Part shown: piece by piece, positions 1,050 to 13,160 of the stretch
Numbering within the stretch: the stretch's first letter is position 1
How the letters are laid out: each line of letters opens with the position of its first letter
Source of the DNA: Candidatus Acetothermia bacterium
GTDB lineage: Bacteria > Bipolaricaulota > Bipolaricaulia > Bipolaricaulales > Bipolaricaulaceae
Assembly (NCBI GenBank): GCA_003563005.1
Contig: PWTC01000018.1
Coordinates: 1-35,367, forward strand
Direction of reading: 5' to 3'
Length of the DNA: 35,367 nt
Made by a program: the position numbers and the translations under genes
Notes under the pieces: model-generated
Database searches by the model: none
Seen by the model: only the letters and a program-made list of their open reading frames with translations
What the model was told of the DNA's origin: nothing

Positions 1050-1493
1050 TCAATCCAGGCCGGGGATGGCCGCGAGATCGAAGTTCGTGAGCAGCCTGAC
1101 AAGGTAACGCACGGCACCTGCCGCCTCCGCGGAGAGGCCTTCGCCTGTGCCCAATTTGCCCGGCTGAACGCCTACCACGACGAGCTCTTCCGCGGCCTCT
1201 TGGAGCAAGGGAACGAGCAAGGTAAGCGGAAGACCGTGTGTGGTGCCGAGCATCACGGGTATGGAGGGAAGAGGAAGCCTGCGAAAAGAGCCCGGGGCGA
1301 GACCCATGTCGGCCGCATCCACGACAACTACGAGATCGGGCTCCAGTCGCTTCACGGCGCCGATGACGTTCTCCAGCGCCGTTCCAGCAGTCCAACACGT
1401 CCAGTCGGACCCAGCCAGTTGCTCGGCGACGTGGAGGCCGACAGCGTCATCAAGCCCCAGGGGGTTCCCCATGCCGATCAGGACTCGGCGCAT
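1050..1493 (-). CDS. Hydrogenase maturation protease (peptidase M52, HycI/HybD family)
   Basis: A 147-residue protein with the M52 signatures: GMGNPLGLDDAVG at residues 7-19, a buried strand ending in VVVVDAADMG (Asp59), a TTHG segment (His86) and GVQPG at 108-112. These match the nickel-sensing residues of HybD (Glu16, Asp62, His93), except that Asp16 replaces the Glu. The family removes the C-terminal tail of the [NiFe]-hydrogenase large subunit after nickel insertion. Its ATG overlaps the stop of the FNR-like gene by one base, so it is the last gene of the operon. No hydrogenase gene lies in the window. It converges on mobB. Confidence 0.87.
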   Translation of the reverse strand: MRRVLIGMGNPLGLDDAVGLHVAEQLAGSDWTCWTAGTALENVIGAVKRLEPDLVVVVDAADMGLAPGSFRRLPLPSIPVMLGTTHGLPLTLLVPLLQEAAEELVVVGVQPGKLGTGEGLSAEAAGAVRYLVRLLTNFDLAAIPGLD

Positions 1494-2245
1494 CAGGCCA
1501 GGTTTTCCCTAAGGAAGGTTCGAAACCGATGTGCCAAGCTGTGCAGGTGCTCACGCTTTCGGATCACGATCCGCTGTCCCTCCAGCTCGAGGATCTCCCG
1601 CTCACGCAGGTCGCTGAGGACGCGGATCGCTGTCTCCGTGGACACTCCAGCCATCTCTGCCAACTCCGCGCGCGGCAGTTCCACGCCGATGTCCAGGCCT
1701 TCGGGCACCTCGCGCCCAAAGGCGCGTGCCAGCTCCAGCAGCACGCGTGCCACGCGCTCCTTGGCCGAGCGGGAGGTGATCTCGACGAGCTTGTCGCCGA
1801 AGACCTTCACCTCACGCGCGAGCTTCTCCACCAGCCGCAGCGCCACGTCGGGATGACGGCGCACGAACTCGAGGAAGTCCTCCTTGGGGATGAACATAAG
1901 TTTCGACCGCTCCAGCGTCCGTGCGTAGCAAGTGTAGGTTTCCTTGTCGAACAGGGTCTTCTCCCCCAGGATCTCACCAGGGCCAAGCAGTTTGAGGATC
2001 TGAGAGTGGCCTGCACGTGTGTGCTTGGCGATCTTGATCTTGCCGTCACAGACGATGTACAGACCGAAAGCTGGCATCCCCTCATGGAACACGGTCTCGC
2101 CCGCTTGGAGGTCCATGGGGCGCATGACCGCCCTCAGATCACGCTGGGCCTCCTTGCTCACGCCCTGGAAGACATACGAACACCCGAGCTTGCAGGACCG
2201 ACACGGGTCAGCCCTGGTCGGGGTTCGAACGGGAGCCTCCCGCAT
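1493..2245 (-). CDS. FNR-like Crp/Fnr transcription regulator with possible Fe-S cluster
   Basis: A 250-residue Crp/Fnr protein. An N-terminal C15-x2-C18-x3-C22 cluster is followed by a cyclic-nucleotide-type beta-barrel (about 35-130), a dimer helix (about 130-155) and a winged HTH (about 165-235). The recognition helix reads VSTETAIRVLSDL and keeps the E-x3-R pattern that reads TTGAT-type half sites in FNR. A further Cys106 lies in KETYTCYART, so four Cys resemble the FNR [4Fe-4S] ligand set. The start overlaps the end of accA by 38 bases; starting later would delete the Cys cluster, which favours this start. It probably senses oxygen or redox state; cluster binding is inferred from Cys placement. 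Confidence 0.85.
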   Translation of the reverse strand: MREAPVRTPTRADPCRSCKLGCSYVFQGVSKEAQRDLRAVMRPMDLQAGETVFHEGMPAFGLYIVCDGKIKIAKHTRAGHSQILKLLGPGEILGEKTLFDKETYTCYARTLERSKLMFIPKEDFLEFVRRHPDVALRLVEKLAREVKVFGDKLVEITSRSAKERVARVLLELARAFGREVPEGLDIGVELPRAELAEMAGVSTETAIRVLSDLREREILELEGQRIVIRKREHLHSLAHRFRTFLRENLA

Positions 2246-3164
2246 GTCGATACCGTTTGTACCTCATCGCCATCCGTTCGTCCAGCGACCGGACGTGTAG
2301 CTCGCCCAGATGTCGCACGATAACAGCCTGCAAGGCGTCCGCGGTCGCTGCAGGATCGTTATGCGCACCACCGAGTGGTTCGGGGACCACCTCGTCGGCA
2401 ATCGCCAGCTCTAGGAGCCGAGGTGCGGTGATCCGCAGCGCACCAGCCGCCTCAGGCGCTGCACCGGCATCCTTCCAGAGGATGGCGGCCGCGCCTTCGG
2501 GGGAGATCACCGAGTAGGTGGCGTTCTCCAGCATGATCACCCGGTCGGCCACAGCCAGCGCGATGGCGCCGCCCGAGCCACCCTCCCCGTGGATGACCGA
2601 GATCGTAGGCACGCGCATGCTCAGCATCCGCGCGATACACGCCGCGATGGCGCCGGCGATATTCTGCTCTTCTGCCTCCACACCCGGGTAGGCGCCCGGG
2701 GTGTCCACCAGGGTCACAAGGGGGAGGCGCAGGCGGTCGGCGATGTCCATCAGGCGGAGCGCCTTTCGGTACCCCTGAGGTTTTGCCATGCCCGACCTGC
2801 ACGTCCGCTGCTCCTCGGCAGTCGCCCCACGGTGGTGGAAGAGCAACACCGCTCGGTGCCCCCCGAGCCGTGCCAGGCCTCCCCGGAGCGCCGGGTCGTC
2901 ACCGATCGCACGGTCCCCGCGCAGTTCGTAGAACGACTCGGTGACCGCTTCGACCAGCCTCAGGCCCCGAGGCCGATCGGTGTGGCGCGCCAGCGCGACG
3001 CGATCCCAATCCGATAGGCTGGCGTAGCGCTTCTCCTTGAGTCCGTGGAGTTTGCGCTCCAGAAGCTCGAGTTCTTCTTTCAGGTCCAGTTCTCCATCGA
3101 CGACCATCTGACGCAGCTCGGCGACCTTGGCCTCCAAGACCCGGATCGGTTCCTCACTCGGCAT
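2208..3164 (-). CDS. accA: Acetyl-CoA carboxylase carboxyltransferase subunit alpha
   Basis: A 318-residue protein, the same size as E. coli AccA (319). An N-terminal coiled helix pair (residues 1-50, with LKEELELLERKLHGLKEKRY) is followed by the crotonase-type carboxyltransferase core. Family signatures include GMAKPQGYRKALRLM, LVTLVDTPGAYPG, AEEQNIAGAIA, GEGGSGGAIALAVAD and ENATYSVISPEG. With AccD it transfers the carboxyl group from biotin on AccB to acetyl-CoA, the first step of fatty acid synthesis. It overlaps accD by 11 bases and the FNR-like gene by 38, so translation is probably coupled. accB and accC are not in the window. Confidence 0.97.
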   Translation of the reverse strand: MPSEEPIRVLEAKVAELRQMVVDGELDLKEELELLERKLHGLKEKRYASLSDWDRVALARHTDRPRGLRLVEAVTESFYELRGDRAIGDDPALRGGLARLGGHRAVLLFHHRGATAEEQRTCRSGMAKPQGYRKALRLMDIADRLRLPLVTLVDTPGAYPGVEAEEQNIAGAIAACIARMLSMRVPTISVIHGEGGSGGAIALAVADRVIMLENATYSVISPEGAAAILWKDAGAAPEAAGALRITAPRLLELAIADEVVPEPLGGAHNDPAATADALQAVIVRHLGELHVRSLDERMAMRYKRYRHAGGSRSNPDQG

Positions 3165-4008
3165 GTCCGCCCTCCGTCAGTACCCCCAGCACGCGGCCAA
3201 GTTCGTCGTGCAGAGCCTCACGGGTGACCACCTGATCGACAATGCCGTGCTCAAGGGCGAACTTCGCCGTCTGAAACCCCGCCGGCAGGCGCTCTCCTGT
3301 CGTCTGCTCGATCACCCGCGGTCCGGCGAATCCGATCATGGCACCCTGTTCCGCGACAGTCACATCCGCGAGGCTCGCCACCGAAGCCAGCATACCTCCC
3401 GTCGAGGGGTACGTCAGCACGGCGATGAACGGGATGCCCGCCTCGGCGAGCAAACTCCGGGCAGCCACGGTCTTGGCCATCTGCATGAGCGACACGGTCC
3501 CCTCCTGCACGCGCGCGCCCCCAGAGGCGACGACGAGCACGAACGGGTTCTTCCCTTCAGCAGCCCCTTCGATCGCCGTAGCGATCTCCTCTCCCACCAC
3601 CCACCCCATGCTCCCTCCGATGAAGCGGAAATCCATCACCGCGAGCATCACCGGATGGCCGGACACCCGCGCGCGTCCCACCATCACCGCGTCGCGTAGT
3701 CCCGTCAGGCTCTGGGCCTCGGCGAGCCGCTCCTCGTACGGGCGGCGATCGACGAATCCCAGAGGATCGGATGAACTGTGCCCTACCGTGAGGGGCTGAA
3801 ACGAACCCTCGTCGCACAGGGAGGCGATACGTTCTTGCGCTGTGAGGAAGAAATAGGCCCCGCAGCGCGGGCATATGTGGTTCGTCTCCCTGAGCTTGCG
3901 TCGAAACACGAGCTCGCCGCACTCGGTGCACCGCAGCCAGAGGGATTCCTCGACGCGGCCGAGCTCCACCTCAACGTACCGACCGCGGTCATCGCGCCTG
4001 ATCGGCAT
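3154..4008 (-). CDS. accD: Acetyl-CoA carboxylase carboxyltransferase subunit beta
   Basis: A 284-residue protein, the usual AccD length. The N-terminal zinc ribbon has Cys at 27, 30, 46 and 49 (CTEC...CPRCG). The carboxyltransferase core shows DPLGFVDRRPYEERL, VMDFRFIGGSMGWVVGE and VASGGARVQEGTVSLMQMAKT. It forms the alpha2beta2 carboxyltransferase with AccA. Its start overlaps the end of the upstream DUF502 gene by 20 bases and its end overlaps accA by 11, giving a tightly packed transcript. Nothing is odd in the catalytic region. Confidence 0.97.
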   Translation of the reverse strand: MPIRRDDRGRYVEVELGRVEESLWLRCTECGELVFRRKLRETNHICPRCGAYFFLTAQERIASLCDEGSFQPLTVGHSSSDPLGFVDRRPYEERLAEAQSLTGLRDAVMVGRARVSGHPVMLAVMDFRFIGGSMGWVVGEEIATAIEGAAEGKNPFVLVVASGGARVQEGTVSLMQMAKTVAARSLLAEAGIPFIAVLTYPSTGGMLASVASLADVTVAEQGAMIGFAGPRVIEQTTGERLPAGFQTAKFALEHGIVDQVVTREALHDELGRVLGVLTEGGHAE

Positions 4009-4648: not shown

Positions 4649-4704
4649 GGCTCGCGTCCTCCGGTCAGCATAGCGTGAAGCAATGCTACCACACATGGAG
4701 ACGG

Positions 4705-4735
4705 TTGGGAAACAACGTGGGCTTTGGGTTATCAT
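4705..4735 (+). promoter_or_regulatory. Possible sigma-70 promoter of acsA
   Basis: A TTGGGA box (4705-4710) and a TATCAT box (4730-4735) are separated by 19 bases, about 50 bases before the acsA start. The -10 box is good (5/6); the spacing is a little long and the -35 weak. Only a suggestion. Confidence 0.35.
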
Positions 4736-4785
4736 GCCGGCGTTGCATATCGGACCCGCAATACGCGAAAGGAGGAGTGCCTACG

Positions 4786-6744
4786 GTGTCCAAGGGTGAG
4801 AAGTGGGTACAGCCTGATCCAGAGAGGACGAATTGGTACTGGCCCAACGAGACGGCCAAAGCCCGGGCGTGGGTGTCGGACCCAGCTGTCTACGAGAAGG
4901 CGGCCGCAGATCCGGAGAGCTTCTGGGCCGAGCGCGCAGAGGAGCTCGACTGGTTCGAGCGATGGAGCAAGGTTTACGAGGATGCCCCCTACGAGTTCAA
5001 GTGGTTCTCCGGGGGAAAGCTCAACCTATCACACAACTCGATCGATCGGCACGTGAAAGCGGGCAAGGGTGACAAGATCGCGCTCATCTGGGAGCCGGAG
5101 CCGGCTGACGAGGAAGGGCGCGTGCTGACGTACAAGGAGCTGCTCGCCGAGGTGAGCAAGCTGGCCAATGCCCTCAAGCAGATGGGGGTCGCCAAGGGAG
5201 ATCGCGTCGGCATCTACCTCCCAATGGTCCCTGAGGCCATCATCGCCATGCAGGCTGTGGTACGCATCGGGGCCGTGCACTCGGTCGTGTTCTCCGCCTT
5301 CTCAGCAGAGGCCCTGCGCGACCGAATGCTCGACTGCGGCGCGAAGGTGCTCATCACCGCCGATGGATATTACCGTCGAGGCAAGCCGATCCCCCTCAAG
5401 CCCAATGCGGACAGAGCTCTTGCAGGGACACAGGTGCAGAAGGTACTCGTCGTGAAGCGCTCCGGATCCGACGTTCCCATGGAGTCGGGCCGTGACGTCT
5501 GGTATCACGAGGCCGTCAAGGGTGCGTCGGAGACCTGTCCACCCGAACCCATGGACGCCGAGGACCTGGCATTCATCCTGTACACATCTGGGACAACGGG
5601 GAAGCCCAAAGGCGTAATGCACACGACTGGCGGCTATGCCGTCCACGCGTACGCCACCTCCAAGTGGGACTTCAACCTCCACGAGAATGACATCCACTGG
5701 TGCACGGCCGATGTGGGCTGGATCACAGGCCACACGTACATCAACTACGGCCCCCTCATGAACGGCGTGACGACGCTCGTCTACGAAGGTACGCCGGACT
5801 ACCCGGACTTCGGCCGCATGTGGCAGGTCATCGAGAAGCACAAAGTGACCGTGTACTACACCGCGCCCACCGCGATCCGTATGCACGTCAAGTGGGGAGA
5901 GGAGTGGCCGGAGAAGTACAACCTGTCGACGCTGCGTGTGCTGGGCACCGTGGGAGAGCCGATCAACGAAGAGGCCTGGCTCTGGTACTTCAACCATATC
6001 GGTGGAGGTCGTTGCCCGATCGTGGACACCTGGTGGCAGACGGAGACCGGCGCCACGTGCGTCCAAGCGCTTCCGGGGATGGGTCCGTTCATCCCGACCG
6101 TGGCCGGAAGGCCGTTCCCCGGCATCCGCGCCGCGATCGTCGACGCCGGCGGCAATGAGGTCGCGCGCGGCGAAGGTGGCTACCTCGTGTTACAGCCTCC
6201 CTTCCCGCCGGGACTGCTCCGCGGGCTGTACGGTGATGTAGAGAAGTATCGCGGGACCTACTTCTCCGAGTACGGTCCGGGCCTCTACTTCACCCGCGAC
6301 GGTGCACGCATGGATGAGATGGGCAACATCCGCATCACCGGGCGCGTCGACGATGTGATGAACGTCGCCGGCCACCGACTGGCCACTGCCGAGGTCGAGG
6401 ACGCGCTGACCCAGCACGCACTCGTCTCTGAGGTCGCGGTGGTGTCGCGCCCCGATGAGGTGAAGGGAGAAGTGCCCATCGCCTTCCTGCTCCTGAAGAA
6501 GGGTGCGCAGCCTTCCGACGGGCTGAAGAAGGAACTCATCAAGACGGTCGACCAGCACATCGGGCCCACAGCCCGACCGGCGGAGATCTACTTCGTCGAC
6601 GACGTGCCCAAGACCCGCTCCGGTAAGATCATGCGTCGCGTTCTCAAGGCGCTGGTACGCGGCGAGCCAGTGGGGGACGTGGCCACGCTGCGAAACCCCG
6701 AGTCGGTGGAAGAGCTCAAGCAGGCCGTCGGCTACAAGTCATAA
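4786..6744 (+). CDS. acsA: Acetyl-CoA synthetase, AMP-forming
   Basis: A 652-residue cytoplasmic enzyme that activates acetate to acetyl-CoA through acetyl-AMP. Landmarks are the P-loop-like YTSGTTGKPKG at residues 266-276, VDTWWQTETG with the acetate-pocket Trp417, the GRVDDVMNVAGHR hinge, and PKTRSGKIMRR near the C-terminus with catalytic Lys614. That lysine corresponds to Lys609 of Salmonella Acs, which is switched off by reversible acetylation. The GTG start at 4786 is chosen because GGAGGAG lies at 4771-4777; the frame stays open upstream to 4675 but that extension does not resemble the family. Two GNAT-fused proteins of the PatZ type are encoded about 1.4 kb downstream, so acetylation control is likely. 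Confidence 0.96.
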   Translation: MSKGEKWVQPDPERTNWYWPNETAKARAWVSDPAVYEKAAADPESFWAERAEELDWFERWSKVYEDAPYEFKWFSGGKLNLSHNSIDRHVKAGKGDKIALIWEPEPADEEGRVLTYKELLAEVSKLANALKQMGVAKGDRVGIYLPMVPEAIIAMQAVVRIGAVHSVVFSAFSAEALRDRMLDCGAKVLITADGYYRRGKPIPLKPNADRALAGTQVQKVLVVKRSGSDVPMESGRDVWYHEAVKGASETCPPEPMDAEDLAFILYTSGTTGKPKGVMHTTGGYAVHAYATSKWDFNLHENDIHWCTADVGWITGHTYINYGPLMNGVTTLVYEGTPDYPDFGRMWQVIEKHKVTVYYTAPTAIRMHVKWGEEWPEKYNLSTLRVLGTVGEPINEEAWLWYFNHIGGGRCPIVDTWWQTETGATCVQALPGMGPFIPTVAGRPFPGIRAAIVDAGGNEVARGEGGYLVLQPPFPPGLLRGLYGDVEKYRGTYFSEYGPGLYFTRDGARMDEMGNIRITGRVDDVMNVAGHRLATAEVEDALTQHALVSEVAVVSRPDEVKGEVPIAFLLLKKGAQPSDGLKKELIKTVDQHIGPTARPAEIYFVDDVPKTRSGKIMRRVLKALVRGEPVGDVATLRNPESVEELKQAVGYKS

Positions 6745-6829: not shown

Positions 6830-8107
6830 ATGGCAGAACTGAGGGTGTTGGGGCTTCCTGCAGAGCGCGGGCGATGGCTGTACGTCAGTCTAGGGACACT
6901 CATCAACATGTGCCTGGGCGCGGTCTACGCCTTCAGTGTGTTCCGCAGGCCCCTGGAACGCCTCTGGGGCATCGGCGCCACCGAAAGCGGCCTCCCGTTC
7001 ATGGTCTTCTTGGCCGTGTTCAGCGTGGGCATGGTCGCCGCCGGGCGCAGCCTGGACCGGTGGGGTCCTCGGCGCGCCGGACTCGTCGGCGCAGCGTTGG
7101 TGGGCGCTGGCTGGCTCCTCGCAGGGCTCTCCCCCAACGTGGGTGTCCTCACCGTCCTCTATGGTGTGCTGGGCGGCGCCGGGGGGGGGGTGCTCTACGG
7201 TTGTCCCATCTCCGTCGCCGCGAAGTGGTTCCCTGATAGAAAGGGACTGGCTGTGGGGCTGACACTGATGGGCTTTGGCCTGTCGGCACTGGTCATGGCT
7301 CCACTGCTCAGCCTCGGGATTCGCGCGCTGGGCCCGCTTCCCACGTTCTCCGTGTTCGGCGGCGCATTCCTGGTGCTTCTCCTCGTCCTCTCCCTGCCAT
7401 TGCGGGTGCCCCCCGCGGGCTGGCGCCCAAGCGGCTGGGCACCCTCCCCCGCGCAGTTGGAGGCAGCCGTAGAACTCACACCGGCGGAGATGTTGCGCTC
7501 AAAGTCCTTCTACGCCCTGTGGGGCTGCTTCACCGTCGGGTGTCTCTCAGGGCTGATGGCGATCGGGATCGCGGCCCCCTTCGGTCAGGAAGTGGCGAAC
7601 CTCGCCGATGCTCCCGCGGCGCTTGCCGTCTCGGTGTTCGCACTGTTCAATGCGGGTGGGCGGCCACTGTTCGGGTGGCTCACAGATCGCCTCACCCCGA
7701 AGTCCACCGCGACGCTCTCCTTCAGTTCGATCGTCCTCGCCTCGGCGCTGCTTGCCCTGTGGGGCGAGGGCAACGCCCCAGTCTACTTTGTGGGTTTCTG
7801 TGTCCTATGGCTCAATTTGGGCGGATGGCTCGCCATCGCCCCCACAGCCACCGCCACCTTCTTCGGAACCAAACACTACGGGATCAACTACGGCTGGGTG
7901 TACACAGGCTACGGATCGGGTGCAATCCTGGGGATGGTTCTCTCAGGGCTTCTCAGGGATCTGACACAGAGCTATGTGTCCGTCTTCCCGCCGATCATGG
8001 GATTGGCCTCAGTGGGCCTGGTGCTGGCTCTTGTCTTCCTGAACCCCGTGCGGAGGCAGGAACCAGTGACCATCCCGAGGCGCAGCCGGCGGCGAACCCA
8101 TCGATGA
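6830..8107 (+). CDS. MFS transporter, oxalate/formate antiporter (OFA)-like family
   Basis: A 425-residue protein with about 12 hydrophobic helices and MFS features: LDRWGPRRAG between helices 2 and 3, GRPLFGWLTDRLTPK in the central part, and a Gly-rich GGAGGGVLYGCPISVAAKWF segment typical of OFA carriers. KGLAVGLTLMGFGLSALV and the late HYGINYGWVYTGYGSGAILG also match OFA proteins. OFA members move small monocarboxylates or dicarboxylates across the inner membrane; next to acsA, acetate or a related acid is a reasonable but unproven substrate. A GAGAGGGG SD site precedes the ATG. A run of ten G (7181-7190) lies inside the coding frame. The gene converges on the PatZ-like gene with a 24-base gap. 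Confidence 0.85.
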   Translation: MAELRVLGLPAERGRWLYVSLGTLINMCLGAVYAFSVFRRPLERLWGIGATESGLPFMVFLAVFSVGMVAAGRSLDRWGPRRAGLVGAALVGAGWLLAGLSPNVGVLTVLYGVLGGAGGGVLYGCPISVAAKWFPDRKGLAVGLTLMGFGLSALVMAPLLSLGIRALGPLPTFSVFGGAFLVLLLVLSLPLRVPPAGWRPSGWAPSPAQLEAAVELTPAEMLRSKSFYALWGCFTVGCLSGLMAIGIAAPFGQEVANLADAPAALAVSVFALFNAGGRPLFGWLTDRLTPKSTATLSFSSIVLASALLALWGEGNAPVYFVGFCVLWLNLGGWLAIAPTATATFFGTKHYGINYGWVYTGYGSGAILGMVLSGLLRDLTQSYVSVFPPIMGLASVGLVLALVFLNPVRRQEPVTIPRRSRRRTHR

Positions 8108-8131: not shown

Positions 8132-10384
8132 TCACCGCAGCCGCCTCTCGGCAAAGGCCACCCCATCCTCGACCACAATCCGGATGTCAAAACCTCGTCG
8201 CTTGAGTAGCCGCATCATACGCACATTGTCTGGGGTCATCTCGCACGCGACCCGCCGCGAGCCCAGCTCCACGGCCCTCTGTACCATGAGGTCGGTCAAG
8301 TGCCCACCCAACCCCCTGCCCTGCCAGGGGTCGCTGACGAACACAGCGAACTCGGCCAGTTCCCGGTCTGGATCCGTGAACAGCTCGCCTTCGCCCACCA
8401 TGGTGCGCAACCCCGAACTCCCCACCTCGGCCACCACGACCCACTCACGGCGGTAGTCAATGCAGCAATGTCGAAGCGCCATTCGCCTCGAGGCCTCATG
8501 GTGCACCGAGTGGTAACGCAAGCGGAGGGAGTCGGGTGAGGACCGGGCGAGCATGCGGCGCCAACGGGGCCCGTCGTCGGGCCGAACAGGGCGCAACGTA
8601 ACACGTGTCCCATCCTTGATTTGGACGGTCTGCGTACGTTCTTCTGGGTAGGGACAGAGGCAGAGATGAGGGCCGAGAGCTGCAGCGTCGACACGCGCGC
8701 GGGCCCCAAGAGCCACGGCGCCCTCGACTGTAGCCGCCACACGCTCGAGTTTGAGTTCCACAAGTGCAGGGACGTCGAAGGCGAGGCGCGAGAGCCGCAG
8801 CAGCAAGATTACCATCTGCTCCACTACGCGTGACGGGAGATCCCCCGGCAGTTCGGCCAGCAGCGAACGAGCTGCAGGCCCGGTCAGCGGAGGCAGCCCC
8901 ACCACGGGGGGGCAACGCCGGCCGTCAAGGGTGCGAGCGAGGATGATCCTCCCGAACTCCGGATGGTGGCGGAGTTCTACAGAGAACGTGTGAGCTCCGG
9001 ACCTAGGCGCATGTCCAGCTACCACGATCCCCCAGCGGCGGAGCACATCCTCGAGCGGAAATCCTTCAATATCGCCGCACGGAAGCGCGTAGGAGGCGCC
9101 CGCTGCAGGGCGCTCAGGCAAGGGGCCCCAGGGGCGATGCAGGTCCTCCAGGTTCCGCACGTAGTCGGCCAGATAACCCAACGCACGGACTGCATCGGCC
9201 AAGCTCGTGTAGACCGGGAGGCCCGCACCGCGCACCGCCGCCGCGCTCGCTGGGTCGCCGCTCACCCCGGCCAGGACCCTGCCGCGTCTGGCAGCCTTCA
9301 CGCCCAGCGCAGCGGCCAGCCTCCCGTCGGCCTCGCCCGGAACCCTCATCGCCAACATGTGGACGCCCGGGTCACGCAGCAGCGCTCCCGACACCTCCAG
9401 AAGCGTCTCACGGTCCCCCAGTCCCGGACAGCGCACCTCTCCAGGCCGCAGTGTGCAGCCCCACGCACGCAGGCCGACACGCGTCGCGACGGAGAGCTCG
9501 GCATCGCCACGAGCTTCCTCCTCTGGTCCAGGCGGCACCAACACGCAGATACGCCCGCCAAGAGGCACGCGTTCGAGTCGGGCGAGGAGCTCGACAAGGC
9601 CTCCAAGATGCTCCATGTCCTCCAGCGGCACCGCAGCCGCACGGCGCATCGCGGAGGAGAACACGACTCTCTCCCACGCCGAACCTGACTTCCAGGTGAT
9701 CAGAGGACGATCGCGGGCGAAGGCCCACACCGCAGGAAGGAACGCATCGGCTGGGGGCATGCTGTCCACGTGGACCAAGAGCGCACGCACACGCCCACGT
9801 CCTCGCAAGTAATCGATGACATCTGCCAGATCCACGTCGGACTGCCCGCCAACGCAGATCAGGTGGCTGAGACCAAACCCGGAAGCCTTCGCATGGCAAA
9901 GGAGCTTGCCCCACAACTCCGGCGCCGAGGAGACCACGGCCAGACCACCCTGCAGCGGCATGCCAGCAGTCAGGCTGGCGTTGAGCCGAAGCCCAGGGAT
10001 GATCAGCCCGTGGGAACCCGGACCGATGAAGCGCGTGCGTGGGAACTCTCGACTCAGCGTACGTATCACATCGGACTCCGCAGTCCGCGAGAGCACGATG
10101 ACAGCGGACGCCGCCGACAGAGCACACACCCTCAAGGCCCGTTCGATGCACTCCGGGGGGGTATCCACCAGGACCAGGTCCAGACCCGAGGGAAGTTCCT
10201 CCATCGAGGCCACCGAGCGGACGCCGCTCACAGCCGAGCCCCGCGCTCCCACGTGGAGCACCTCGCCAGCGAATCCGTGTTCCAGGATGTTCCGCAGCGC
10301 TCGCCGGCCAAGCTGTCCAGGACCTTGCGACACGACCCCTACGCTCCTAGGTCGGAATCCTTGCTGCAGATGCCGTATGCCCAC
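8132..10384 (-). CDS. PatZ-like protein: degenerate NDP-forming acyl-CoA synthetase fused to GNAT acetyltransferase
   Basis: About 750 residues; a paralogue of the upstream gene. It starts with a CoA-binding domain (GFRPRSVGVVSQ), continues through degenerate succinyl-CoA ligase-like domains and ends in a GNAT domain (about residues 585-750; DPWQGRGLGGHL is the acetyl-CoA loop). Compared with its neighbour, the SHTGALAG motif holding the catalytic His is gone (FSSAMRR; ungapped alignment puts Met at about residue 246 where the His should be). About 85 residues of the ATP-grasp domain are missing, including the THKTDVGG loop. It is therefore probably not a synthetase but a protein acetyltransferase, like enterobacterial Pat/PatZ, which also lacks the His. 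The GTG start at 10384 (GAGG five bases upstream) aligns with the paralogue; the frame is open to 10525, so the start is uncertain. Confidence 0.85.
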   Translation of the reverse strand: MGIRHLQQGFRPRSVGVVSQGPGQLGRRALRNILEHGFAGEVLHVGARGSAVSGVRSVASMEELPSGLDLVLVDTPPECIERALRVCALSAASAVIVLSRTAESDVIRTLSREFPRTRFIGPGSHGLIIPGLRLNASLTAGMPLQGGLAVVSSAPELWGKLLCHAKASGFGLSHLICVGGQSDVDLADVIDYLRGRGRVRALLVHVDSMPPADAFLPAVWAFARDRPLITWKSGSAWERVVFSSAMRRAAAVPLEDMEHLGGLVELLARLERVPLGGRICVLVPPGPEEEARGDAELSVATRVGLRAWGCTLRPGEVRCPGLGDRETLLEVSGALLRDPGVHMLAMRVPGEADGRLAAALGVKAARRGRVLAGVSGDPASAAAVRGAGLPVYTSLADAVRALGYLADYVRNLEDLHRPWGPLPERPAAGASYALPCGDIEGFPLEDVLRRWGIVVAGHAPRSGAHTFSVELRHHPEFGRIILARTLDGRRCPPVVGLPPLTGPAARSLLAELPGDLPSRVVEQMVILLLRLSRLAFDVPALVELKLERVAATVEGAVALGARARVDAAALGPHLCLCPYPEERTQTVQIKDGTRVTLRPVRPDDGPRWRRMLARSSPDSLRLRYHSVHHEASRRMALRHCCIDYRREWVVVAEVGSSGLRTMVGEGELFTDPDRELAEFAVFVSDPWQGRGLGGHLTDLMVQRAVELGSRRVACEMTPDNVRMMRLLKRRGFDIRIVVEDGVAFAERRLR

Positions 10385-10411
10385 TTCGACCTCGTCGCAG
10401 CGGGTCCTCCA

Positions 10412-10436
10412 CCCGCCGCCCCACACCCCCCCACCC
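10412..10436 (-). promoter_or_regulatory. G-quadruplex-forming tract before the degenerate PatZ-like gene
   Basis: On the minus (mRNA-sense) strand four G runs of 3, 7, 4 and 3 are separated by T, TGT and CGGC loops, a canonical quadruplex pattern. The tract lies in the 73-base gap between the two tandem genes, about 27 bases before the proposed GTG. It may influence translation or transcription. If translation began farther upstream it would simply encode a Gly/Trp-rich stretch. Confidence 0.45.
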
Positions 10437-10457
10437 AACGTATCCGATCCGGGATGG

Positions 10458-13160
10458 CTACGCCGCGAGTTCCTTGTGGGCGAGCACCACACCCTCCTCG
10501 AAGCGGCTCTCGATCTTGAAGCCACGGTTGCGGAAAATCGTGATCATACGCGTGTTGTCAGGAGTTGTCTCCGCCTGTACGTGCAGGACGCCCCAGCCAC
10601 GTGCGATCTCCAGGCAGTAGTCCGTGAGCTGGCCCCCCAGGCCCTTGTCCTGCCAAGGGTCGGCGACGAACACTGCGTACTCCGCCGTCTCCCGGTCGGC
10701 CCCGGCGACGAGACGTCCCACACCGGCCAGCTTGCGTTCCCCGTCCGCCTCGATCTCGGCTACGATGGCCAGTTCTCGGTCGTAGTCCGTAAAGCAGTAG
10801 CGGGTGGCCATCTCGTGCGTGCTCTCCTTGAAGATGTACCTGAAACGGAAGCGGATCGACTCCCGCGAGGAGACACGCAGCATCTCGTGCCACCGAGGCT
10901 CGTCCTCGGGACGGATGGGTCGAAGCACAACCGGAGTCCCATCCTCCATCTTGGTCTTGCGGACGTACTCGTAAGGGTAAGGACGAATGGCCAGGTGGTC
11001 GTAGCGACCGTACGGAAGCCTTCTTTCGCCCACACGGTCGGGCTCGATGACGATCCGTGCATCGAGCGCTATAGCCTCGTCGGGCGTCGCCAGCAAGGGG
11101 TTGATGTCCAATTCCGCGATCTCGGGATAGTCAGCCACCAGGTAAGAGAAGCGCATGATCACCTCAAGCAGCTTGTCCAGATCGACAGCCGGACGACCCC
11201 GGAAACCTGTGAGGAGCCTCCAGGAACGCAACGACTCAAGCATGCGCCGCGCCAGACGTTCGTTGAGCGGCGGGAGCGCCAAGGCGCGATCTCTGAACAC
11301 CTCAGCCGCGGTACCTCCCGTGCCGACCATGATGACGGCGCCGAAGGCCGGATCATGCTTGGCGCCCAGGATCAGCTCGAAGCCGTGCCGAGCCTTGATC
11401 ATGCGTTGCACGGTGACGCCCTGAACATCCGCCTCGGGCTCCGCTTCGCGCGCCGAGGACACGATCCGTTCGAAGGCCGCGCACACAGCGGCGGCATCCT
11501 CAAGATCGAGCACAACCCCCCCCACATCCGTCTTATGCGTGATGTCCGGCGAGTGAACCTTGAGCACCACCGGGTAGCCGATCTCTTCAGCGATCTTCAC
11601 CGCCTCGTCGGCAGAAGTTGCCTCCTGAAGGAGGGTCGTCGGGATGCCGTAGGCGTCCAACAGCTCCTTTGAGGTCCCTTCGGAGAGGGTCGTGCGTGCC
11701 GTGTCCGAGAACACCGCGTCGAAACGCTCCTTGATCTTCTCCCGGTCAAGCTCGAAGCGTACCGGGATGTCCCGAGGCGTCTCGTACAGGATGTCCAGGT
11801 TGCGCGCGTAGTGCACCAGATGCATGAAGGCACGGACTGCCTGCTCAGGGGTGGTGTACGTGGGGACGTTGGCTTCCGTGAGCACCTCCCCCCCCTCACT
11901 CACCGTGCGCCCACCCATCCATGCGGCGAGCAGGGGCTTGTGTCCCTCCGCAGCGATGCGGCCGATCTCCCGCGCCGTCGCCGTAGGATCGGTCATGGCC
12001 TGGGGGGTCAGGATGATCAGCACGGCATCCACGCCCTCGTCCTTGAGCACCAGTTCCGTGGCCTTGGCGAAGCGCTCAGGTCCGGCATCACCAAGGACGT
12101 CCACGGGGTTGCCTCGTGACCAGAACGGTGGTAGAAGCGCGTTGAGATCTCTGAGCGTCTCCTCCGACAGCGTGGCCAGGCTCCCCTCCCGGGCCAGCAG
12201 CGCGTCGGTGGCCATGACGCCTGGCCCACCTGCGTTGGTGACGATGGCCAGCTTCGCTCCGGTCGGGGGACGTACGCGGGCCAGGAGCTCTGCGGAGTCG
12301 AACACATCGTCGATCTCGAACACCCGCACGATCCCCGCACGCTGGAGCGCAGCATCATAGACAGCGTCCTCACCGGCCAGCGCCCCTGTATGACTGGCCG
12401 CGGCCTTGGCTGACTCAGCGAATCGGCCCGATTTGTAGGCGACGACAGGCTTCTCCTTGGCGAACGCTCGAGCAGCGGACATGAACTCGCGCCGCTCGGA
12501 GACCGACTCCATGTACAGGATCATGGATTGGGTAGCTGGATCCTCGCCGAAGTAATCGATGAGATCTCCGAAATCCACATCGAGCATGTTGCCTACGGAG
12601 ACGAAGTAGGAGAAGCCGATCTCCCGCTCGAGTGCCCAATCCAAGACCGAGGTACACAGCGCTCCCGACTGGGATACGAACGCCACATGCCCTGCCTTGG
12701 GCATCGCCCCGGCGAAACTCGCGTTGAGCTTGAGCGACGGCACGATCACCCCAAGACAGTTGGGCCCAACGATGCGCATCCCAGGGAACTCCTTGGCGAC
12801 AGCCCCCACCTTCTCCTCAAGGGCGCGGCCCTCCTCCCCAATCTCCTTGAAACCCGCGGAGTTGATCACAATGCCCCGGATCCCGACCTCACCGCACTCG
12901 CGTATCAGATCGGGCACAGAGGACGCCGGTGTACAGATGATGGCGAGATCCGCTGTACGAGGCAGGCTGGAGACGGACGGATATACGTGGATCCCCTGCA
13001 CGGATTCCCGCTTGGGGTTCACCGGGTAGATGACGCCCTTGAAACCCGAGCCCACGAGGTTCCTGAGCACCGTGTAGCCCACACTGTTAGGGTTGTCGCT
13101 GGCCCCGATCACCGCCACGCGCTCGGGTTTGAAGATCTTATCTAGATTGCGGATGCTCAC
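10458..13160 (-). CDS. NDP(ADP)-forming acyl-CoA synthetase fused to GNAT acetyltransferase
   Basis: A 900-residue, three-part protein. Residues 1-460 are the alpha-like part: CoA-binding VAVIGASDNP, GPNCLGVIVP, SQSGAL, and ASHTGALAG with His257, the position phosphorylated in Pyrococcus ADP-forming acetyl-CoA synthetase. Residues 470-715 are the ATP-grasp beta-like part: PVVLKVHSPDITHKTDVGG, GTGGTAAEVFRD and ELDINPL. Residues 740-900 are a GNAT domain with DPWQDKGLGGQL. Both synthetase catalytic regions look intact, unlike E. coli PatZ. It may interconvert acyl-CoA and acid with ADP/ATP, acetylate proteins such as AcsA, or both. The GTG start at 13160 has AAGGAGGA four bases upstream; an in-frame ATG at 13181 lacks such a site. 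Confidence 0.9.
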   Translation of the reverse strand: MSIRNLDKIFKPERVAVIGASDNPNSVGYTVLRNLVGSGFKGVIYPVNPKRESVQGIHVYPSVSSLPRTADLAIICTPASSVPDLIRECGEVGIRGIVINSAGFKEIGEEGRALEEKVGAVAKEFPGMRIVGPNCLGVIVPSLKLNASFAGAMPKAGHVAFVSQSGALCTSVLDWALEREIGFSYFVSVGNMLDVDFGDLIDYFGEDPATQSMILYMESVSERREFMSAARAFAKEKPVVAYKSGRFAESAKAAASHTGALAGEDAVYDAALQRAGIVRVFEIDDVFDSAELLARVRPPTGAKLAIVTNAGGPGVMATDALLAREGSLATLSEETLRDLNALLPPFWSRGNPVDVLGDAGPERFAKATELVLKDEGVDAVLIILTPQAMTDPTATAREIGRIAAEGHKPLLAAWMGGRTVSEGGEVLTEANVPTYTTPEQAVRAFMHLVHYARNLDILYETPRDIPVRFELDREKIKERFDAVFSDTARTTLSEGTSKELLDAYGIPTTLLQEATSADEAVKIAEEIGYPVVLKVHSPDITHKTDVGGVVLDLEDAAAVCAAFERIVSSAREAEPEADVQGVTVQRMIKARHGFELILGAKHDPAFGAVIMVGTGGTAAEVFRDRALALPPLNERLARRMLESLRSWRLLTGFRGRPAVDLDKLLEVIMRFSYLVADYPEIAELDINPLLATPDEAIALDARIVIEPDRVGERRLPYGRYDHLAIRPYPYEYVRKTKMEDGTPVVLRPIRPEDEPRWHEMLRVSSRESIRFRFRYIFKESTHEMATRYCFTDYDRELAIVAEIEADGERKLAGVGRLVAGADRETAEYAVFVADPWQDKGLGGQLTDYCLEIARGWGVLHVQAETTPDNTRMITIFRNRGFKIESRFEEGVVLAHKELAA

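What the first reader, a model, noticed from the sequence alone, without database searches (positions are those of the whole stretch)
8132..13160. Tandem acyl-CoA synthetase-GNAT pair: one intact, one a pseudo-synthetase that keeps its acetyltransferase
The two neighbouring genes are paralogues with the same domain order. The longer has His257 in SHTGALAG and a complete ATP-grasp part. The shorter lacks that His (FSSAMRR at the site) and about 85 residues of the ATP-grasp domain including the THKTDVGG loop, yet its GNAT loop (DPWQGRGLGG) is intact. In enterobacteria the single His-less protein Pat/PatZ acetylates Acs, and acsA lies only about 1.4 kb away. This suggests duplication followed by division of labour: one metabolic or bifunctional enzyme and one dedicated acetyltransferase, perhaps working as a hetero-oligomer that senses acyl-CoA.
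Basis: partly seen in the sequence, partly recalled or inferred. Interest (0 to 1): 0.75.

Follow-up and report, generated by a model that had tools for sequence, protein, structure and literature searches.

The report
Duplicated acetyltransferase that lost its synthetase
In an uncultured Bipolaricaulota (Acetothermia) bacterium, a two-in-one enzyme gene (acetyl-CoA synthetase fused to a protein acetyltransferase) was copied side by side, and the copy has lost its synthetase machinery while keeping a strongly conserved acetyltransferase, arriving at a design much like the E. coli regulator PatZ, probably by a separate route.

Summary
LONG (window 10458-13160/13181, minus) is an intact fusion of NDP-forming acyl-CoA synthetase (ACD) and GNAT. 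SHORT (8132-10384, minus, 750 aa) is its tandem paralogue: the catalytic-His loop (about 15 residues) and a 76-residue ATP-grasp block are deleted, other phosphoryl-transfer motifs are gone, and the GNAT core with the Glu equivalent to PatZ E809 remains. The window comes from Ca. Bipolaricaulota/Acetothermia. LONG is near-universal in its family. SHORT occurs in 3 of 40 family genomes (2 genera), always directly after LONG and with the same two main deletions. It is not decaying: the frame is open despite near-saturated synonymous change, and its GNAT is 66-76% identical between genomes against 28-57% for the scaffold. acsA lies convergent to LONG in 14 of 21 loci; every AcsA found near it keeps PKTRSGK, and the genome has a sirtuin. 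SHORT most likely acts as a dedicated Pat-like acetyltransferase; AcsA is the favoured but unproven target. A second, phylogenetically separate pseudo-synthetase-GNAT paralogue exists in another family of the class. Trees disfavour a PatZ origin but do not exclude it (AU p about 0.05). New variant of a known kind (type I lysine acetyltransferase).

The parts
8132..10384 (-). SHORT: pseudo-synthetase-GNAT, 750 aa, start GTG 10384-10382
   Evidence: start homologous to the starts in L058 and L059; orthologues in G010 and G017 at 47-50% identity
8138..8617 (-). GNAT domain of SHORT; Glu at 8351-8353 equals PatZ E809; loop DPWQGRGLGG
   Evidence: 66-76% identical between orthologues, dN/dS about 0.1
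9680..9685 (-). Point in SHORT where the catalytic-His loop (about 15 residues) is deleted
   Evidence: Alignment; same deletion in all three orthologues
9029..9034 (-). Point in SHORT where 76 residues of the ATP-grasp domain, including the THKTDVGG loop, are deleted
   Evidence: Alignment; same deletion in all three orthologues
10385..10457 (-). LONG-SHORT spacer, 73 bp, G-rich with a G7 run; 6 bp in both relatives
10458..13160 (-). LONG: intact ACD-GNAT fusion, 900 aa from GTG 13160 (907 aa from ATG 13181)
   Evidence: universal or nearly so in the family
12390..12392 (-). Catalytic phospho-His codon of LONG (SHTGALAG; His257 or His264 by start)
11535..11537 (-). ATP-grasp His codon of LONG (THKTDVGG)
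10467..10946 (-). GNAT domain of LONG; Glu834 at 10680-10682 equals PatZ E809
6830..8107 (+). MFS transporter, convergent with SHORT, conserved between acsA and the ACD-GNAT
4675..6744 (+). acsA, AMP-forming acetyl-CoA synthetase, with the Pat-type acetylation motif PKTRSGK (start probably GTG 4786)
   Evidence: convergent with LONG in 14 of 21 loci

Best explanation
In an ancestor of two Bipolaricaulota genera, the gene for an intact ADP-forming acetyl-CoA synthetase-GNAT fusion (LONG) was duplicated in tandem. The downstream copy (SHORT) lost every part needed for phosphoryl transfer (His loop, phospho-His helices, ATP-grasp lid) but kept the folded scaffold and a constrained GNAT. SHORT is a dedicated protein lysine acetyltransferase that uses the inactive synthetase as scaffold or acyl-CoA sensor, like PatZ. 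It is made with LONG and most likely acetylates AcsA at the PKTRSGK lysine, reversed by the sirtuin, so that AcsA does not run against LONG-driven, ATP-yielding acetate formation. Shown by computation: duplication, deletions, predicted fold, constraint, co-location, motif, sirtuin. Inferred: acetyltransferase activity, the AcsA target, sensing, co-expression and the direction of metabolism.
For: Domain and motif anatomy. Same tandem and same two main deletions in G010 and G017, spacer 6 bp. GNAT dN/dS about 0.1, scaffold about 0.3, frame open near synonymous saturation. SHORT falls among family ACD-GNATs in the GNAT tree (98/94) and beside the same genera's LONGs in the full-length tree (90/75). 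AlphaFold model pLDDT 83.7, pTM 0.84; best solved match is E. coli PatZ, TM 0.83. acsA convergent with LONG in 14 of 21 loci and adjacent on the same strand in two f5 loci. PKTRSGK in all 14 AcsA found near LONG in f1 loci. Sirtuin present; AckA and Pta not found. PatZ also lacks the catalytic His and needs its synthetase-like domain for activity (PMC8556138).
Against: No assay. AcsA is not shown to be the substrate; most relatives keep the acsA cluster without SHORT. Twelve of 22 fixed GNAT differences cluster in one block (LONG 759-797), which could mean a new acceptor. Parts of the acyl-CoA-binding Rossmann loop are altered in SHORT, so sensing may be lost. The genome is 88% complete, so absence of AckA/Pta is tentative. 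dS is near saturation, so the ratios are rough.
Confidence: 0.6

Rival explanations
1. SHORT is an active acetyltransferase but has moved to another acceptor (another protein, or a small amine), while LONG keeps AcsA.
For: Of 22 positions fixed differently in the two GNATs, 12 lie in LONG 759-797 (39 of 160 residues; about 5 expected by length; block chosen after the fact), including HE to RR, FRYIFK to YHSVHH and CF to CC. Relatives without SHORT keep the acsA cluster.
Against: SHORT stays next to LONG and acsA in all three genomes; no other candidate substrate was identified.
Confidence: 0.27
2. SHORT works mainly as a partner of LONG in a mixed oligomer, tuning its synthetase or acetyltransferase activity.
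For: Adjacent genes in one direction with a 6-bp spacer in two genomes; scaffold retained and predicted to fold; PatZ works as tetramers or higher (PMC8556138).
Against: The GNAT, not the scaffold, is the most conserved part; no interface evidence; the complex could not be modelled here.
Confidence: 0.15
3. SHORT came from a Pat/PatZ-type gene by transfer rather than from LONG.
For: Top fold match is PatZ; holding SHORT with the Pat group is not firmly rejected (AU p=0.052 full length, 0.057 GNAT). Long branches make its place uncertain.
Against: lnL falls by 19 and 11; GNAT identity 48% to LONG against 30% to PatZ; tandem position; SHORT has deletions PatZ lacks.
Confidence: 0.06
4. SHORT is a decaying pseudogene.
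For: Many synthetase motifs lost; scaffold evolves fast (28-57% identity).
Against: Open 750-codon frames in three genomes at synonymous distances of 1.6-2.4; a crude simulation gives about 12 stops at 0.8 random replacements per site; GNAT dN/dS about 0.1.
Confidence: 0.02

Closest known systems
E. coli PatZ (YfiQ) / Salmonella Pat, type I (class I-alpha) lysine acetyltransferase; PDB 9it0, 9isq
   Same: Inactive NDP-forming acyl-CoA synthetase region followed by GNAT; no catalytic His; Glu809 equivalent kept; same fold (TM 0.83)
   Different: SHORT also lacks the ATP-grasp lid, the SQS helix and the Glu of ILYxE, which PatZ keeps; it has an intact tandem paralogue; trees favour a separate origin
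Intact ACD-GNAT fusions (LONG; Cupriavidus respiraculi L060)
   Same: Same architecture; paralogue of SHORT
   Different: Both catalytic His motifs and ATP-grasp intact; potentially bifunctional
NDP-forming acetyl-CoA synthetase, Ca. Korarchaeum ACD1 (4xyl/4ybz), Pyrococcus 2csu
   Same: Fold of the N-terminal region (TMt 0.74-0.80)
   Different: ACD has His loop and ATP-grasp lid and no GNAT
f5 pseudo-synthetase-GNAT (L093, L101, L119)
   Same: ACD-GNAT paralogue with loss of the THKTDVGG lid and second GG helix beside intact copies in the same genomes
   Different: Keeps SHIG at the His site; a clade with SHORT is rejected (AU p=5e-12), so a separate event

Membership tests
[quoted passage not shown]
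   in SHORT the N-terminal region is reduced to about 585 aa by deletions
Type I (class I-alpha) bacterial lysine acetyltransferase, Pat/PatZ type | Synthetase part inactive, catalytic His absent | tested here: met
   SHORT: loop deleted in all three orthologues. LONG does not meet this: SHTG intact
Type I (class I-alpha) bacterial lysine acetyltransferase, Pat/PatZ type | GNAT Q/RxxGxG/A acyl-CoA loop and E809-equivalent Glu | tested here: met
   QGRGLGG and LAEFAVFV
Type I (class I-alpha) bacterial lysine acetyltransferase, Pat/PatZ type | Acetylates a lysine of AMP-forming Acs; cooperative acetyl-CoA binding and oligomerisation | not testable with these tools
   Needs assay; the target motif PKTRSGK is present in AcsA
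Descent from the PatZ lineage | Groups with PatZ in trees | tested here: inconclusive
   Best trees place it with the family's LONGs; Pat grouping AU p 0.052 and 0.057
NDP-forming acetyl-CoA synthetase (ACD) | Phospho-His loop and ATP-grasp with THK.DVGG | tested here: not met
   SHORT lacks both; LONG meets both

The most novel reading that the evidence does not exclude
PatZ-like regulators arise repeatedly: a bifunctional synthetase-acetyltransferase duplicates and one copy sheds its chemistry to become a dedicated sensor acetyltransferase. This happened separately in the two Bipolaricaulota families and in the Pat lineage, and here parent and derivative still sit side by side beside the likely target.
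Probability: 0.4. Interest if true: 0.6.

Novelty: new variant of a known kind. Interest (0 to 1): 0.45.

Why it matters
Why Pat-type acetyltransferases carry a dead synthetase is not settled. Here an apparently intact parent and a stripped derivative are neighbours, next to acsA, so the roles of the synthetase chemistry, the scaffold and the GNAT can be separated with natural proteins. It also suggests enzymatic acetylation control of acetate metabolism in an uncultured phylum, in a genome where no acetate kinase or phosphotransacetylase was found.

Tried and rejected
Random decay of SHORT: rejected by open frames and constraint. Chance synteny: rejected, since 14 of 21 loci have acsA nearby, always convergent. 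A common origin of SHORT and the f5 pseudo-synthetase: rejected. A virus-borne copy: no relative in viral contigs. The 618-aa plus-strand ORF 9816-11672 lies antisense to both genes and was taken as a shadow frame (not tested). Paper searches for a described intact ADP-forming synthetase-GNAT enzyme found none in the open-licence library, which is weak evidence. An ancient duplication before the family split is not excluded (AU p=0.14).

Full report
OBSERVATION. The window carries two minus-strand genes with the same domain order. LONG (10458-13160, or to 13181) has CoA-binding, succinyl-CoA-ligase-like, ligase-CoA, ATP-grasp_5 and GNAT domains. SHORT begins at GTG 10384 and ends at 8132, 750 aa. 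BLASTP between them gives E=6e-59, 35% identity over the C-terminal part and 29% over the N-terminal part. The His loop of LONG (SHTGALAG; His257 from GTG 13160, His264 from ATG 13181) is deleted in SHORT, as are 76 columns of ATP-grasp with the THKTDVGG loop. Further signatures are gone: Rossmann GA, GPN to GPG, SQSG, Glu of ILYxE, TNAGGPG, NPVD and the second GG helix. That these serve phospho-His chemistry is family knowledge (succinyl-CoA synthetase, ACD1), not tested here. The GNAT loop and the E809-equivalent Glu remain.

SOURCE. The record names suggest the soda-lake sediment set of PMC6146748, an inference. The window's own genome is 1.4 Mb and 88% complete.

DISTRIBUTION. LONG-type proteins occur in most of the 40 genomes of the family, often incomplete MAGs, and in families f4 and f5; no match at E below 1e-150 was found in the other families of the class that were searched. 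SHORT is found in three genomes of two genera (G000, G010, G017), each time directly after LONG; the spacer is 73 bp in the window and 6 bp in the other two. In relatives without SHORT the acsA cluster is kept; in L045 the MFS gene directly abuts LONG.

CONSTRAINT. Between SHORT orthologues the GNAT is 66-76% identical and the synthetase-derived segments 28-57%; in LONG orthologues the figures are 74-88% and 69-91% (the short GNAT linker is left out). Rough dN/dS is about 0.1 for the SHORT GNAT, 0.28-0.37 for its scaffold, and 0.06-0.15 for LONG (dS near saturation). The frames are open in all three genomes. The GNAT is therefore selected, and the scaffold is under weaker but real constraint.

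ORIGIN. In a full-length tree SHORT joins the LONGs of the same two genera (90/75, not firm); in a GNAT tree it lies within the family's LONGs and stand-alone GNATs (98/94) and apart from PatZ. Holding SHORT with the Pat group costs 19 and 11 log units, AU p=0.052 and 0.057: disfavoured, not excluded. An older duplication before the family split is not rejected (p=0.14). SHORT has long branches, so these placements carry a risk of artefact.

A SECOND CASE. In family f5, G053, G059 and G056 hold an ACD-GNAT paralogue (L093, L101, L119) beside intact copies. L093 and L101 keep SHIG at the His site but lack the ATP-grasp lid and second GG helix; L119 also keeps SHIG and lacks the THKTDVGG motif, but its frame ends before the GNAT. 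The G053 and G059 copies are identical, so one may be a binning error. A clade of SHORT with L093/L101 is rejected (p=5e-12), so this loss is a separate event.

FOLD. AlphaFold with eight sequences gives pLDDT 83.7 and pTM 0.84 for SHORT. The best solved match is E. coli PatZ 9it0 (TM 0.83, E=6e-54), then ACD-type enzymes.

FUNCTION. acsA lies within 5.3 kb of LONG and convergent in 14 of 21 loci (14 of 20 in the family; at least one of the others ends at a contig end), and next to it on one strand in two f5 loci. All 14 AcsA found near LONG in the family carry PKTRSGK, the type of motif acetylated by Pat (own knowledge). A sirtuin is present, and AckA and Pta were not found. PatZ and Salmonella Pat have inactive synthetase regions that are needed for activity and, in Salmonella Pat, bind acetyl-CoA (PMC8556138). 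The best reading is a dedicated acetyltransferase acting on AcsA. The chief doubt is the acceptor: 12 of 22 fixed differences between the two GNATs fall in LONG 759-797, a block noticed after the fact.

VERDICT. The finding is real, lineage-restricted and under selection. It is a new variant of type I lysine acetyltransferases; its interest lies in the parent-derivative pair and in the sign that such loss recurs. No biochemical step has been shown.

Noticed in passing
window 10385-10457: The spacer between LONG and SHORT is G-rich with a G7 run (GGGTGGGGGGGTGTGGGGCGGCGGGTGG, minus strand), absent from the two relatives: possible slippage or quadruplex site ahead of SHORT.
   Followed up: no
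L093, L101, L119: Separate pseudo-synthetase-GNAT paralogue in family f5; the copies in G053 and G059 are identical, which may be a binning error.
   Followed up: partly
L104-L112: Stand-alone GNATs of about 165-220 aa (some in longer frames) from the same family occur in many relatives and group beside LONG in the GNAT tree, as if the GNAT had escaped the synthetase.
   Followed up: partly
window 1493-4008: Crp-type regulator, accA and accD (acetyl-CoA carboxylase) lie upstream of acsA and are conserved in several relatives: an acetyl-CoA locus.
   Followed up: partly
G000:C26:4932-7004 (L002): A second ACD-type synthetase (40% identical to LONG over residues 13-714); the match does not reach the GNAT.
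   Followed up: no
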